Of a stretch of DNA of 64,000 bases, positions 6,104 through 12,311 are shown one piece after another. The stretch covers positions 1,488,001-1,552,000 of the forward strand of contig NZ_CP095187.1 of NCBI RefSeq assembly GCF_022965755.1, written 5' to 3'. The first letter of the stretch is position 1; each line of letters starts with the position of its first letter. A program made the translations under genes and the position numbers. This DNA is from Pseudoxanthomonas sp. F37 (lineage in GTDB: Bacteria > Pseudomonadota > Gammaproteobacteria > Xanthomonadales > Xanthomonadaceae). Under the pieces are notes generated by a model. The model was not told the origin of the DNA. It saw nothing but the letters and a program-made list of their open reading frames with translations, and did not search any database.

Positions 6104-6133
6104 GTCGGCAAATGTTAATAGCCAGAGATCTAC

Positions 6134-6183
6134 AGACATGAGAGTGTCTACGTGACGACCTGTTTTGGTTGTCATGTTTGACA
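6134..6183. promoter_or_regulatory. two short inverted repeats upstream of the GG-leader peptide gene
   Basis: Two dyads precede the small gene at 6206: AGACA-N6-TGTCT (6134-6149) and TGTCA-TGTT-TGACA (6170-6183). They share the GACA/TGTC half-site. The region is AT-rich against its surroundings. They could be operator sites; no regulator is encoded next door, so function is inferred only. Confidence 0.35.
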
Positions 6184-6205
6184 TCTCACATAATAAGGAT
6201 CTTAT

Positions 6206-6397
6206 ATGAGGCAGCTAGATAGATGGGAATGCATCCGAGTCGCTGGCGGAGATTTTTTTGACACAGCGGGCACGGCGATTGGCATGTTTCAAGATGCGGC
6301 GGCTGTGAGCGGAAACGGTGGTTTGCTACTTGTGTCTGCGGCGATTGATGTCGGAAAGGTGGCAATTGTCGTGGCTGGGACGTTTCTGCTTGACTAG
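6206..6397 (+). CDS. putative double-glycine-leader peptide (microcin / class II bacteriocin-like precursor)
   Basis: A 63-residue product with a good ribosome site (AAGGA six bases before ATG). The first 15 residues, MRQLDRWECIRVAGG, carry the GG-leader positions of microcin V exactly: M1, R2, L4, E8, V12, G14, G15. Such leaders are removed by C39-peptidase ABC exporters. The predicted 48-residue core is hydrophobic, with 16 Gly/Ala, a GxxxG motif (GTAIG), a single Lys, and an acidic end (FLLD). GC of 6121-6420 is about 49% by hand count, far below the neighbours, and codons such as CTA, AGA and repeated TTT occur; both suggest acquisition. No exporter, peptidase or immunity gene is recognisable nearby. 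I see the leader pattern; antibacterial activity is inferred. Confidence 0.6.
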   Translation: MRQLDRWECIRVAGGDFFDTAGTAIGMFQDAAAVSGNGGLLLVSAAIDVGKVAIVVAGTFLLD

Positions 6398-6417
6398 TTT
6401 ATTGTGACTGTAGAGTG

Positions 6418-6443
6418 CTCCTCGTCCTTCTGGGGGCGAGGAG
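6418..6443 (+). terminator. possible hairpin terminator after the GG-leader peptide gene
   Basis: CTCCTCG (6418-6424) pairs with CGAGGAG (6437-6443), with further C-G pairing inside. It lies 20 bases after the peptide stop codon. The tail (TTACAAG) is T-poor, so it would be a weak terminator or a 3'-end stabilising hairpin. Confidence 0.4.
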
Positions 6444-6491
6444 TTACAAGACGGCAGCGCGCGGTCTGTGTAGTGGCACATCTCGAGAACT

Positions 6492-6899
6492 TCACTTAAG
6501 CCACTCTATCCATTCTTGGATCTTGGTCTCCAGCATGGCGGGCGCGTGGCGTACCGCACTCCCGTTGCCCCACACCGGCCCCGGCCATGCGGCATCGCCT
6601 GCATGACGTCCCACCAGATGCACGTGCAGCTGGCGCACGATGTTGCCCAGCGCGCCGATGTTCAGTTTCTCCACGCCGGCCTGCGCGCGGACCAGTTGCC
6701 CGGCCTGGTTGATCTCCGCGAGCAGCAGGCGCTGCTGGCCGCCCTCCAGGTCCAGCCATTCGCTGATGCCGTTCACGCGGGGCACCAGCACCAGCCACGG
6801 AAAGCGCGTGTCATCCATCAGGCGCACCTGCGACAGCGGGCCGTCGGCGACGAAGACGCTGTCGGCGGCCAGGCGGGGGTCCAGGACGAAGTCGGTCAT
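6492..6899 (-). CDS. HIT-domain nucleotide-binding protein
   Basis: 135-residue protein of the histidine-triad superfamily, which usually hydrolyses or transfers nucleotidyl groups. The motif region is NIVRQLHVHLVGRHAGDAAWPGPVWG (88-111, in pieces: LHVHLVG at 91-97). The first two motif histidines (92, 94) are present and the third position is Val96. Its ATG overlaps the stop of the dienelactone-hydrolase gene in an ATGA, so the two are translationally coupled. The substrate is unknown. Confidence 0.85.
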   Translation of the reverse strand: MTDFVLDPRLAADSVFVADGPLSQVRLMDDTRFPWLVLVPRVNGISEWLDLEGGQQRLLLAEINQAGQLVRAQAGVEKLNIGALGNIVRQLHVHLVGRHAGDAAWPGPVWGNGSAVRHAPAMLETKIQEWIEWLK

Positions 6900-7702: not shown

Positions 7703-9064
7703 ATGTCCCTGCAGAACCCCAAGGTGGGCTTCGTCAGCCTCGGCTGCCCGAAGGCCCTGGTCGATTCCGAGCGCATCCTCACCCAGCTCCGCGTGGAGGG
7801 ATACGACATCGTGCCGACCTACGATGCGGCGGACGTGGTGGTGGTGAACACCTGCGGCTTCATCGATTCGGCGGTGGCCGAGTCGCTGGACGCCATCGGC
7901 GAGGCGATGAACCAGAACGGCAAGGTCATCGTCACCGGCTGCCTGGGCAAGCGCCCGGAACAGATCCGCGAGCAGTACCCGGACGTGCTGGCGATCAGTG
8001 GTCCGCAGGACTACCAGAGCGTGATGGAAGCGCTGCACGAAGCGTTGCCGCCGAGGCACGATCCGTTCGTCGACCTGGTCCCGGACTACGGCATCAAGCT
8101 GACGCCGCGCCACTACGCCTACCTGAAGATTTCCGAAGGCTGCAACCACCGCTGCAGCTTCTGCATCATCCCGTCGATGCGTGGCGACCTGGTGTCGCGG
8201 CCGGTCGACGACGTGCTGCGCGAGGCCGAGCGGCTGGTGCGCGGTGGCGTGAAGGAACTGCTGGTGGTCTCGCAGGACACCTCCGCCTACGGCGTGGACC
8301 TGAAGTACGCCGAACGCGAATGGCGCGGCAAGGCGTACCAGACGCGGATGAAGGCCTTGTGCGAAGGCCTGGGCGAGCTCGATGCCTGGGTGCGCATGCA
8401 CTATGTCTACCCGTACCCGCACGTCGACGACGTCGTCCCGCTGATGGCCGAGGGCAAGGTGCTGCCCTACCTGGACATCCCGTTCCAGCACGCCAGCCCG
8501 CGCATCCTCAAGCTGATGAAGCGGCCGGGTGCGGTCGACAGGACGCTGGAGCGCGTGAAGCGCTGGCGCGCGATCTGCCCGGACATCACCCTGCGTTCCA
8601 CCTTCATCGTCGGCTTCCCCGGCGAGACCGACCAGGAGTTCGAGGAACTGCTGCAGTTCCTGGACCAGGCGCAGCTGGACCGCGTGGGCGCATTCGCCTA
8701 TTCGCCGGTCGAGGGCGCGGCCGCGAACCTGTTGCCGGACCCGGTGCCGGAAGAGGTGAAGCAGGAACGCCTGGCGCGCTTCATGGAGAAGCAGGCGGAG
8801 ATTTCCGCCGCGCGCCTGGAAGCGAAGGTCGGCACGGTGCAGCAGTGCCTGGTGGATCTGATCGAAGACGACATCGCGGTGGCGCGTTCGAAGGCCGATG
8901 CGCCTGAGATCGACGGCCTGGTGCATATCCAGAACGGCGGCGAAGCGGGCCTGCGCGTGGGCCAGTTCGTCGACGTGGAGATCACCGAGAGCGACGAACA
9001 CGACCTGTTCGGCGACGCCATCGTCGCAACGGCGGGCCGGCCGCTCGACGTCAAGGTGCTGTGA
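7703..9064 (+). CDS. rimO: ribosomal protein S12 methylthiotransferase
   Basis: Radical-SAM enzyme that adds a methylthio group to the conserved aspartate of ribosomal protein S12; 453 residues. The N-terminal MTTase domain has cluster cysteines at C15 (LGCPK), C51 (NTCGF) and C80 (TGCLG). The radical-SAM motif is CNHRCSFC (147-154), and a C-terminal TRAM domain ends [19 protein letters not shown]. The start at 7703 gives [17 protein letters not shown], as expected. The downstream DUF3025 gene overlaps its stop in a GTGA. Confidence 0.97.
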
Positions 9065-9888
9065 CCGCGCCGGCGACCGGCGCCCACGCCGGCGGTGGCC
9101 GGCGCCGCTTTGTCGCCCCCTTGCGCGAGGACGTGGATGCCGCGTCCTTCCGGCATCCCTTGTTCGAGGAATACGGCGACTTTCTCGATCTGGCGACGGC
9201 CGCGCCCTGGCCGTCGATCGAAGAGCTCAATGCGCGGATGCCGGCCTCCGGGCCCCGCTTCGTGATGCAGGATGCGGCGCTGCTCGCCGACGGGCTGCAC
9301 TACGAGGCACGCCTTGCCCAGGGATGCATCGCCACGCGGCCGGAGAACTGGCACGACCTGTTCAACGCGATGGTCTGGATGCGTCACCCGGGCCTCAAGC
9401 GCGCGCTCAACCAGCAGCAATGCCGGCATATCGCCAGGATGGGGGCGCGCGAGCGCAGTCCTGCCCAGCAGGCATTGACGCAGTTCGATGAGAACGGGGT
9501 CATCGTGCAGGTGCGCGGAACGGCGCTGCTGGATCTGTGGGACTGGCACGACTGGACGGGCCTGTTCCATTCGAACGCCGCGCGCTGGCGCAGCGGCGAC
9601 ATCGCCGTGGTTGCGGTGGTGGGACATGCGCTGATGGAGCAGATGCTGGTGCCGGGACGTCTGCTGGTCGGCAAGTGCGTGGTCGTGCCGGGCGGTTCGC
9701 TGGATCCTGTCGCGCGCGTGGCCGCATCGATTTCGGATGGCGCCATTCTCGCCACGCCGGCCGCGCTGCGCCCGCTGCCCCTGGCCGGCATTCCGGGCTG
9801 GCACGCGGGACAGAGCGAGGCGTTCTATGCGCAGACGGATTACTTCAGGCCGCTACGCGAGGGCCGCGTGTATCCGCCACCGTGGTGA
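9061..9888 (+). CDS. DUF3025-type protein
   Basis: 275-residue protein of unknown function, probably cytoplasmic (no signal peptide or membrane helix). Family-like blocks are [27 protein letters not shown] and LFHSNAARW; a late [13 protein letters not shown] is followed by an aromatic tail. The GTG start overlaps the rimO TGA (GTGA), so translation is coupled to rimO. The coupling suggests co-expression but does not tell function. Confidence 0.8.
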
Positions 9889-9891
9889 GCG

Positions 9892-10395
9892 TCAGCCCGC
9901 GTAGCCGACATCCACCAACACGAAGTGGGTAACGCCGCCAGGCAGTTCCACGGCGAATTCGTCGTCGATGCGCTTCTTCAGCAGCGCGCGCGCCATCGGC
10001 GAGTCGATGCTGATCCAGCCGCGGGCCGCATCGGTCTCGTCGGGGCCGACGATGCGGTAGCGCGACACCTCGCCGCTGGCGAGGTTCTCCAGTTCGACGG
10101 TGGCGCCGAAGAACACCACGTCGGGATCGCTGGGTGCCGTGTCGACCACGCGCAGCACTTCCAGGCGCTTGCTGAGATAGCGCACGCGGCGGTCGATTTC
10201 GCCCAGTTGCTTCTTGCGATAGGTGTATTCCGCGTTCTCGGAGCGGTCGCCCTCCGCCGCCGCAGCGGCCAGCGCCTTCACCACCTCCGGACGCCTGACG
10301 CGCCACAGGTCGTCCAGTTCCGCCTTGAGGCGGTCGTGGCCCGCGCGGGTGATCAGGGCGGTGCTCTTCTCGCCCGGCGGCCGCCAGCGCGACAC
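9892..10395 (-). CDS. greB: transcription elongation factor GreB
   Basis: Rescues backtracked RNA polymerase by stimulating transcript cleavage; 167 residues. The N-terminal coiled coil carries the catalytic acidic tip GDRSENAEY (Asp50, Glu53), and [20 protein letters not shown] distinguishes GreB from GreA. The C-terminal FKBP-like domain includes [15 protein letters not shown]. The start is GTG at 10395, two bases after the TGA of the NlpE-like gene, implying co-translation. It is convergent with the DUF3025 gene, three bases apart. Confidence 0.95.
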
Positions 10396-10396
10396 C

Positions 10397-10804
10397 TCAG
10401 CGCTCCCCGGCAGCCGCGTCCGCGCGCCGCAGCGTGCGTCCGCGCGGATCCTCGACCGGCTCGATGCAGCTGCCTGAAGTGAGCACCAGCAGGTCTTCCT
10501 GGTGGATGGCGAACTCCTGCGCGGGCTGGCCGTGGTCCGGCACGAGCTGCACGCAGGTGCCGTTCCATGTCACCGACCAGCGCCCGGCGCTCACCGGCGC
10601 AGCCCGCAGGTCGTCCTGGCAGTGCGCCTGCAGGGTGTAGCGTCCGTCGGCGCGCAGGTCCAGCAGCACGTCCTGCATCACGCAGCCGGTGGATGGCAGG
10701 CTGCCGAAGAACGGACCGGCGAAGCTCGCCGGGGTCGGGTTGGCGGCGGCGGCCACCAGCGACACGGCGATGCCTGGCAGGACGAAAGGCCACTTCATGC
10801 GCAT
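10397..10804 (-). CDS. NlpE-like small exported protein
   Basis: 135 residues with an N-terminal signal-like segment ([20 protein letters not shown]). The body resembles the NlpE N-terminal fold: [46 protein letters not shown]. Four cysteines (GCVMQD, HCQDD, TCVQL, SCIEP) could form two disulfides. No lipobox cysteine is visible, unlike E. coli NlpE, so it is probably periplasmic. It sits between the DUF853 ATPase gene (4 bases) and greB (1 base) in a likely operon. The fold assignment is tentative. Confidence 0.6.
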
Positions 10805-10808
10805 GCGA

Positions 10809-12311
10809 TCAGCGGCGCCCGCCGAAGAGGCCGCCCAGGATGCCGCGCACGATCTGGTTGCCCAGCTTGGTGCCGATGGTGCGCGTGGTCTGCTTGGCCA
10901 TTGTCTCGATCATGCCCTGGCGGCGCCTGGTGCCGAACACCGCGTCTTTGACCGACTGGCCGAAGCCGCCCGCGTCCGGATCGTCCTTCTCCGTCTTCGC
11001 CGCCGGTGCGTTGGCGGCCTGCGCCGCGGTTTCCGCGCGCTTGGCGAGCATTTCCGCGGCGGATTCGCGGTCCACCGGCGTGTCGTACTTGCCGCCGACA
11101 GGGCTGCCGTTGCGCACCTGCTGGCGCTCGGCTTCGTTGATCGCGCCCATGCGGCAGCGCGGCGGCGACACCAGCGTCTGCTGCACGGGCGATGGAATGC
11201 CCTTGTCCTGCAGCGTGGACACCAGCGCCTCGCCGGTGCCGAGCTTGGAGATGGCCTGGGCCACGTCCAGCTTCGGGTTCGGCACGAACGTTTCCGCCGC
11301 GGTCTTGACCGCCTTCTGGTCGCGCGGGGTGAAGGCGCGCAGCGCGTGCTGCACGCGGTTGCCCAACTGGCCGAGGATGTCGTCCGGCACGTCGTCGGGG
11401 AACTGCGAGCAGAAGTACACGCCCACGCCCTTGGAGCGGATCAGGCGCACCACCTGTTCGATGCGCTGCTGCAGGGCCGGCGGGGCATCGTCGAACAGCA
11501 GGTGCGCTTCGTCGAAGACGAACACCAGCTTGGGCTTGTCCAGGTCGCCGACTTCCGGCAGCGTCTCGAACAGCTCCGACAGCAGCCACAGCAGGAAGCT
11601 GGAGTACAGGCGCGGCTTCAGGATCAGCTGGTCCGCCGCCAGGATGCCGATCACGCCGCGGCCGTCGGTGTCCGTGCGCATCAGGTCGGCCAGTTCCAGT
11701 GCCGGCTCGCCGAAGAACATCTCGCCGCCTTCCTGTTCCAGCCGCAGCAGCGCGCGCTGGATGGCGCCCACCGACTGCGTGCTGACCAGGCCGTAGCTGG
11801 TGGAGATGTCCTTGCGCTCGGCGGCGACCAGGCCCAGCAGGGCGCGCAGGTCTTCCAGGTCGAGCAGCAGCAGGCCGCGGTCGTCGGCCAGCTTGAACAC
11901 GATGTCCAGCACGCCGCTCTGGGTGTCGTTGAGTTCCAGGATGCGCGAGAGCAGGGTGGGGCCCATCTCGCTGACGGTGGTGCGGACCGGATGGCCCAGC
12001 CGGCCGTACAGGTCCCAGAAGATCACCGGGTTCGCGCCGGGCGCGTAGTCGGTGATGCCGATGTCCTTCGCGCGCTGCACGACCCGTTCGCTGCCGTCGC
12101 CGGCTGTCGCCAGTCCGGCCACGTCGCCCTTCACGTCGGCCATGAACACGGGCACGCCCATGCGGGAGAAACCCTCGGCCAGCGTCATCAGCGTCACCGT
12201 CTTGCCGGTGCCGGTGGCGCCGGCCACCAGGCCGTGGCGGTTGCCGAACTTCGGCTGCAGCGTGACCGGGATGTCGTCCGTGATGCCCTTGCCCAGCAGG
12301 ATCGGGTCCAT
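10809..12311 (-). CDS. HerA-like DUF853 family ATPase
   Basis: 500-residue cytoplasmic P-loop ATPase of the HerA/FtsK-related DUF853 family; role not established. Walker A is GATGTGKT near residues 31-38; Walker B is LVFVFDEAHLLF about 250 residues later; QFPDDVPDDILGQLGNRVQHALRAFTP is a family block. The C-terminus is Gly/Arg-rich (ILGGLFGGRR). I chose ATG 12311 (MDPILLGKGITDD), which has GAGG seven bases upstream, over an in-frame TTG at 12317. It appears to lead the NlpE-like/greB transcript. Confidence 0.92.
   Translation of the reverse strand: MDPILLGKGITDDIPVTLQPKFGNRHGLVAGATGTGKTVTLMTLAEGFSRMGVPVFMADVKGDVAGLATAGDGSERVVQRAKDIGITDYAPGANPVIFWDLYGRLGHPVRTTVSEMGPTLLSRILELNDTQSGVLDIVFKLADDRGLLLLDLEDLRALLGLVAAERKDISTSYGLVSTQSVGAIQRALLRLEQEGGEMFFGEPALELADLMRTDTDGRGVIGILAADQLILKPRLYSSFLLWLLSELFETLPEVGDLDKPKLVFVFDEAHLLFDDAPPALQQRIEQVVRLIRSKGVGVYFCSQFPDDVPDDILGQLGNRVQHALRAFTPRDQKAVKTAAETFVPNPKLDVAQAISKLGTGEALVSTLQDKGIPSPVQQTLVSPPRCRMGAINEAERQQVRNGSPVGGKYDTPVDRESAAEMLAKRAETAAQAANAPAAKTEKDDPDAGGFGQSVKDAVFGTRRRQGMIETMAKQTTRTIGTKLGNQIVRGILGGLFGGRR

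What the first reader, a model, noticed from the sequence alone, without database searches (positions are those of the whole stretch)
6206..6397. Orphan microcin-like peptide with a microcin V-type double-glycine leader
The first 15 residues MRQLDRWECIRVAGG place M1, R2, L4, E8, V12, G14 and G15 exactly as in the microcin V leader MRTLTLNELDSVSGG. The remaining 48 residues are hydrophobic, one-third Gly/Ala, contain GxxxG and are acidic at the end. A good ribosome site and AT-rich, foreign-looking codons support a real, acquired gene. It sits alone between dcd and a HIT gene: no C39-peptidase ABC exporter and no immunity gene are nearby, so it could be an orphan bacteriocin, a signalling peptide, or one of a dispersed set sharing a distant exporter.
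Basis: partly seen in the sequence, partly recalled or inferred. Interest (0 to 1): 0.78.

Follow-up and report, generated by a model that had tools for sequence, protein, structure and literature searches.

The report
Stray microcin-like peptide, crippled distant exporter
A lone small gene in a Pseudoxanthomonas-type bacterium looks like the precursor of a secreted, bacteriocin-like peptide; its relatives scatter such genes around the genome and appear to share one distant export machine, but in this strain one part of that machine has been lost.

Summary
The ORF at 6206-6397 is as described: 63 codons, ATG, AAGGA 6 nt upstream, 54% GC in a 68% GC window. It lies in a roughly 390-bp AT-rich insert between dcd and a HIT gene; 29 other same-genus dcd loci examined lack such a low-GC stretch. 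No homologue of the whole peptide was found. Its leader is better than chance: a model of 74 exporter-linked leaders that leaves it out gives 9.9 bits; 9 of 74 left-out leaders and 15 of 61 further, uncurated precursors score no higher, while random ATG-ORF N-termini reach it once in about 220,000. But that model misses it genome-wide at E<=10. The genome holds one related C39-ABC exporter gene, 1.23 Mb away; its HlyD-type adaptor gene is reduced to two fragments and the local precursors are gone. In the genus, 15 of 30 leader hits lie away from an exporter locus, including a second orphan here. Best reading: an orphan double-glycine precursor from a dispersed, exporter-sharing microcin-like repertoire, probably now stranded. 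No recognisable immunity gene; activity untested.

The parts
6206..6397 (+). 63-aa double-glycine precursor ORF
   Evidence: leader statistics
6206..6250 (+). 15-residue leader MRQLDRWECIRVAGG
   Evidence: compare consensus MRELxxxExxxVxGG of 74 exporter-linked leaders; 9.9 bits with itself left out
6251..6394 (+). 48-residue hydrophobic core; predicted two helices with a break around residues 36-37
   Evidence: AlphaFold2 on the single sequence, mean pLDDT 70.9, pTM 0.40, weak
6195..6199 (+). ribosome-binding site AAGGA, 6 nt from ATG
   Evidence: sequence
6170..6183 (.). palindrome TGTCATGTTTGACA, possible operator
   Evidence: only match in the window, expected 0.03; absent from the upstream regions compared (84 exporter-linked precursors and 18 loci read on the minus strand; dispersed plus-strand ones not compared)
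6415..6447 (+). strong 3' hairpin, terminator-like but with a poor T tail
   Evidence: 66-nt stretch 6395-6460: -28 kcal/mol, z -3.4; the consensus scan found no terminator
6104..6491 (.). AT-rich insert between dcd and the HIT gene
   Evidence: gap is 15-27 bp in 3 relatives; lowest 300-bp GC downstream of dcd 0.48 here against 0.58-0.68 in 29 relatives

Best explanation
The gene encodes a double-glycine-leader precursor of the microcin V type. Inferred mechanism: a C39-ABC exporter (PCAT) cuts after G15 and, with a HlyD/CvaA-type adaptor and TolC, releases the 48-residue hydrophobic core, which probably inserts into membranes of related bacteria. In Pseudoxanthomonas such precursors sit both beside and far from an exporter locus, so the exporter appears to serve scattered single-gene cassettes in trans. 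This gene is one such cassette. Because the adaptor gene at this strain's only closely related exporter locus is reduced to fragments, the peptide is probably not exported now and the gene is likely a stranded or recent relic. Shown: ORF, leader similarity, insert, exporter remnant, dispersed relatives. Inferred: cleavage, export, killing, stranding.
For: Leader better than chance. 84 precursors with leaders of this class collected from 54 exporter-locus stretches of 51 genomes of the family; not every stretch yielded one, and they were not curated by hand. Their genes are also low in GC (mean 0.56 against locus 0.63) and the window's core length, hydropathy and Gly/Ala content lie inside their ranges. 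In 38 same-genus genomes, leader hits occur in 12 of 13 exporter-positive and 1 of 25 exporter-negative genomes (Fisher 6e-8; many of these hits were in the training set); counting only dispersed hits outside the training set, 7 of 13 against 1 of 25 (9e-4). A dispersed and an exporter-linked precursor share core sequence (17 of 49 positions, E 2e-10 for the pair). Own exporter gene: C39, membrane and ATPase domains, no stops, pairwise dN/dS 0.10-0.14 against five relatives.
Against: With its own leader left out, the whole-genome model misses this ORF at E<=10; the earlier E=0.0084 came from a model that contained it. A first PSSM from 13 genus leaders put it at chance level. Under the 84-leader PSSM it scores below every left-out leader (12.4 against 14.2 or more, though collection was cut at 13). 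W7 was in none of 143 leaders, C9 in 4. Core similarity to the precursors is no better than for shuffled cores. No recognisable immunity gene, no shared upstream sequence, no consensus promoter. No intact adaptor of this type in the genome.
Confidence: 0.68

Rival explanations
1. Chance: an AT-rich insert holds an ORF for an unrelated small hydrophobic peptide, or no product at all, and the leader resemblance is coincidental.
For: Unbiased genome search misses it; no homologues; narrow PSSM at chance level; core similarity as for shuffles.
Against: About 1 in 220,000 random ATG starts score as high; clear ribosome site and 3' hairpin; GC, length and composition within the range of exporter-linked precursors.
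Confidence: 0.17
2. An exported double-glycine peptide that acts as a signal or on the producer itself rather than as a bacteriocin.
For: No recognisable immunity gene; double-glycine leaders also serve signalling peptides (general knowledge); gonococcal bacteriocin-like Nap peptides mediate autolysis (PMC11798529: title, start of abstract and passages seen).
Against: No receptor or regulator gene beside it (only dcd and HIT); hydrophobic Gly/Ala-rich core resembles membrane-active peptides (inference).
Confidence: 0.1
3. An intracellular membrane toxin or small membrane protein of type I toxin kind, not exported.
For: Hydrophobic two-helix model; orphan position; exporter probably not working.
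Against: Leader anchors would then be unexplained. No antisense RNA was sought, so this is weakly tested.
Confidence: 0.05

Closest known systems
Microcin V (colicin V) and other class II microcins
   Same: 15-residue leader with M, R, L, E, V, G, G in register (microcin V leader as quoted in the finding); hydrophobic Gly/Ala-rich core; a PCAT in the genome
   Different: no adjacent immunity or export genes recognised, adaptor gene fragmentary, no Pfam match at E<=10, activity unknown
Predicted class II microcins of Xanthomonas (PMC13174018; abstract, section 16 and passages seen)
   Same: same bacterial family, predicted precursors with double-glycine signals
   Different: their candidates had PCAT and adaptor proteins identified in the same genome; here the adaptor is fragmentary and the gene lies far from the exporter. 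Their sequences were not compared with this one.
Exporter-linked precursors of Pseudoxanthomonas found here (for example in L112-L116, L119-L122)
   Same: same genus, leader class, low GC, similar core size
   Different: they lie beside the exporter; no core similarity to the window peptide beyond that of shuffled cores

Membership tests
Class II microcin | 15-18-residue double-glycine leader | tested here: met
   low but within the range of exporter-linked leaders
Class II microcin | C39-peptidase ABC exporter in the genome | tested here: met
   one C39-ABC at G000:C1:2722191-2724287, 1.23 Mb away; the conserved Cys, His and Asp positions are visible in the alignment; its native first residues are lost
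Class II microcin | membrane fusion (adaptor) protein of the exporter | tested here: not met
   only residues 1-25 and 246-289 remain at the locus; five further matches at 28-32% identity elsewhere
Class II microcin | cognate immunity gene nearby | tested here: inconclusive
   besides this ORF, three ORFs of 51-63 codons touch the insert (6186-6365 -, 6326-6481 -, 6415-6606 +); each is antisense to this ORF or to the HIT gene and none was judged plausible, but immunity proteins share little sequence to test for and no transmembrane prediction was run
Class II microcin | antibacterial activity of the core | not testable with these tools
   needs an experiment
Class II microcin | match to curated microcin or bacteriocin models | tested here: not met
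   Pfam none at E<=10; NCBIfam only a weak lactococcin G-alpha hit, 15.4 bits against cut-off 37; the other precursors scanned also fall below the cut-offs
Double-glycine precursors of Xanthomonadaceae PCATs | leader of the MRELxxxExxxVxGG class at the N-terminus | tested here: met
   but missed by the genome-wide search when left out of the model

The most novel reading that the evidence does not exclude
Pseudoxanthomonas keeps a dispersed arsenal of single-gene double-glycine peptide cassettes, without recognisable immunity genes, served in trans by one exporter; cassettes move alone into intergenic slots, and genomes that lose the exporter (this one, and G012, which has leader hits but no exporter match at E<=1e-60) keep stranded precursors. 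One branch of the arsenal carries a core module shared with a LysM protein encoded close by.
Probability: 0.3. Interest if true: 0.6.

Novelty: new member of a known kind. Interest (0 to 1): 0.42.

Why it matters
Microcin surveys that look for precursor and complete exporter together would undercount scattered orphan precursors. A strain that keeps precursors while its exporter decays would show how such systems are gained and lost, and whether lone precursors need immunity.

Tried and rejected
DNA matches of the cassette in 395 family genomes, our own included: 35 genomes including ours matched at E<=0.1; the other matches are short. Several overlap the leader codons. All fetched loci were scanned by script for a leader at the match, but two of them (L075, L077) have short flanks and their match place was not located by that script; five loci (L068, L070, L075, L077, L081) were also read for leader-like motifs, and no leader peptide was recognised there; L068 reads WECSLVAGVDF only in the wrong frame of another gene. 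Shared upstream sequence: the best similarity to other precursors' upstream regions was reached or beaten by 176 of 200 shuffles. Core homology: best E 0.008, between the 5th and 25th percentile of shuffled cores. Stand-alone C39 peptidase at 2.06 Mb: no ABC part and next to a repeat-rich protein, so not taken as the exporter. A first script misread the gap for 15 minus-strand loci; redone. A 13-leader PSSM was replaced by 84-leader and HMM models; its unfavourable result is reported. The genome-wide E=0.0084 is set aside because the model contained the query. In one search our own copies (L025, L055) were left out of the background loci. PHROGs and PADLOC were not searched. Term searches for prior reports: (listings); none of those listings showed a paper on Pseudoxanthomonas microcins.

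Full report
Observation. The ORF 6206-6397 is real as sequence: ATG, 63 codons, AAGGA 6 nt upstream, a strong hairpin after the stop. It lies in an AT-rich insert between dcd and a HIT gene. dcd was found in 37 of 38 genus genomes and loci were given for 30, our own plus 29. The lowest 300-bp GC downstream of dcd is 0.48 here and 0.58-0.68 in the 29 others; three relatives have a dcd-HIT gap of only 15-27 bp against about 390 here (HIT stop codon counted in the gap); HIT was not found in the fetched stretch of 13 of the 30 loci. The insert is thus particular to this genome in the sample.

Homologues. None was found for the whole peptide: 100 genomes including our own, best foreign E 0.039; genome contigs, 595 pattern stretches, none confirmed at E<=1e-3; plasmids and phages, none at E<=1; DNA in 395 family genomes, only short hits, those inspected showing no leader peptide.

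Exporter. PF03412 finds two C39 loci in the genome. One is a stand-alone peptidase beside a repeat-rich protein. The other is a PCAT, 90% identical to that of G008 over that protein's residues 6-700, with C39, membrane and ATPase domains. Pairwise dN/dS is 0.10-0.14 for ours against five relatives and 0.08-0.13 among the relatives compared. Aligned with the G008 locus, our locus lacks most of the HlyD-type adaptor gene, the precursor region and the first codons of the PCAT. An adaptor search of the whole genome finds only the two fragments (residues 1-25 and 246-289) and five matches at 28-32% identity elsewhere. Export by the normal three-part route is therefore doubtful. A GTG codon with AAGGA upstream could still start the PCAT (sequence; inference). 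The genus is Pseudoxanthomonas, inferred from contigs whose lengths equal those of genus genomes G019, G008 and G022 and which are named Root630, PXM03 and Gammapro3.

Leaders. From exporter loci of the genus (14 stretches, 12 genomes) and family (40 stretches, 39 genomes) an iterated model collected 84 precursors; the HMM used 74 of their leaders, consensus MRELxxxExxxVxGG. They are low in GC and short, with cores of 20-97 residues. They were not curated by hand. The window leader scores 12.4 bits under the 84-leader PSSM, below all 84 leave-one-out scores (lowest 14.2, but the collection was cut at 13); chance is about 1.9e-6 per start codon at window composition. One random start in 328,811 reached it; in 528 kb of real sequence the only hits were this ORF (three copies of its locus) and 13 exporter-linked peptides. 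Under the HMM of 74 leaders without it, it scores 9.9 bits; 9 of 74 leave-one-out leaders and 15 of 61 further precursors from named loci score no higher; a few of the 61 look spurious. Random ATG starts reach 9.9 bits once (two nested starts) in 125,998 and never in 94,238; in 765 window starts only this ORF does, and in 3,465 starts of 77 other loci only the second orphan does. Against it: the same model run genome-wide reports only the second orphan and misses this ORF at E<=10, and a first 13-leader PSSM gave chance-level odds.

Dispersed set. In 38 same-genus genomes the leader model (75 leaders, the window's among them) gives 30 hits in 13 genomes. By position, 15 lie within a few kb of a PCAT and 15 do not, including the window ORF and a second orphan at G000:C1:154943-155113. 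Exporter-positive genomes (about 45% identity or more to our PCAT) number 13; 12 have leader hits, against 1 of 25 others. Weaker ABC hits of 29-34% were counted as negative. Many exporter-side hits were in the training set; dispersed untrained hits alone occur in 7 of 13 against 1 of 25. Some genomes are drafts, so distance cannot always be proven. A dispersed peptide of G036 shares its core with the exporter-linked peptide of G008; a second comparison is weaker.

Interpretation. The evidence favours an orphan double-glycine precursor of a microcin-like repertoire that uses an exporter in trans. It works like a class II microcin precursor in its leader; I do not file it as a class II microcin, because the adaptor and curated-model features were tested and not met, immunity is unresolved and activity is untested. 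A single-sequence model suggests two helices, 6-35 and 38-62, at modest confidence (pLDDT 70.9, pTM 0.40). Literature seen: passages of PMC9746304, PMC10233263 and PMC11798529; passages and section 16 of PMC13174018; other papers only as listings.

Noticed in passing
G000:C1:154943-155113 (-), L172, L174: Second orphan double-glycine peptide; its core begins with a module (ADFSDVTATVTSTEQIV) that resembles the N-terminal repeats of a LysM protein 0.7 kb away. Similar module in leader peptides of G008, G022 and G033.
   Followed up: partly
L023:6189-8500 (-): Exporter locus with the adaptor gene reduced to two fragments; the first lies in the same 817-residue open frame as the PCAT, the second in another frame.
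   Followed up: partly
L182, L189, L200: Dispersed leader peptides with similar cores (FAPVLVAIGIALLSGCATTGGLRKGE and the like) in G012, G036 and G013.
   Followed up: no
L024 about 8800-11568 (-): Stand-alone C39 peptidase near a Gly/Asn-rich repeat protein, possibly a functional-amyloid type system (recalled, not tested).
   Followed up: no
window 6170-6183: Palindrome TGTCATGTTTGACA just upstream of the gene, unique in the window.
   Followed up: partly
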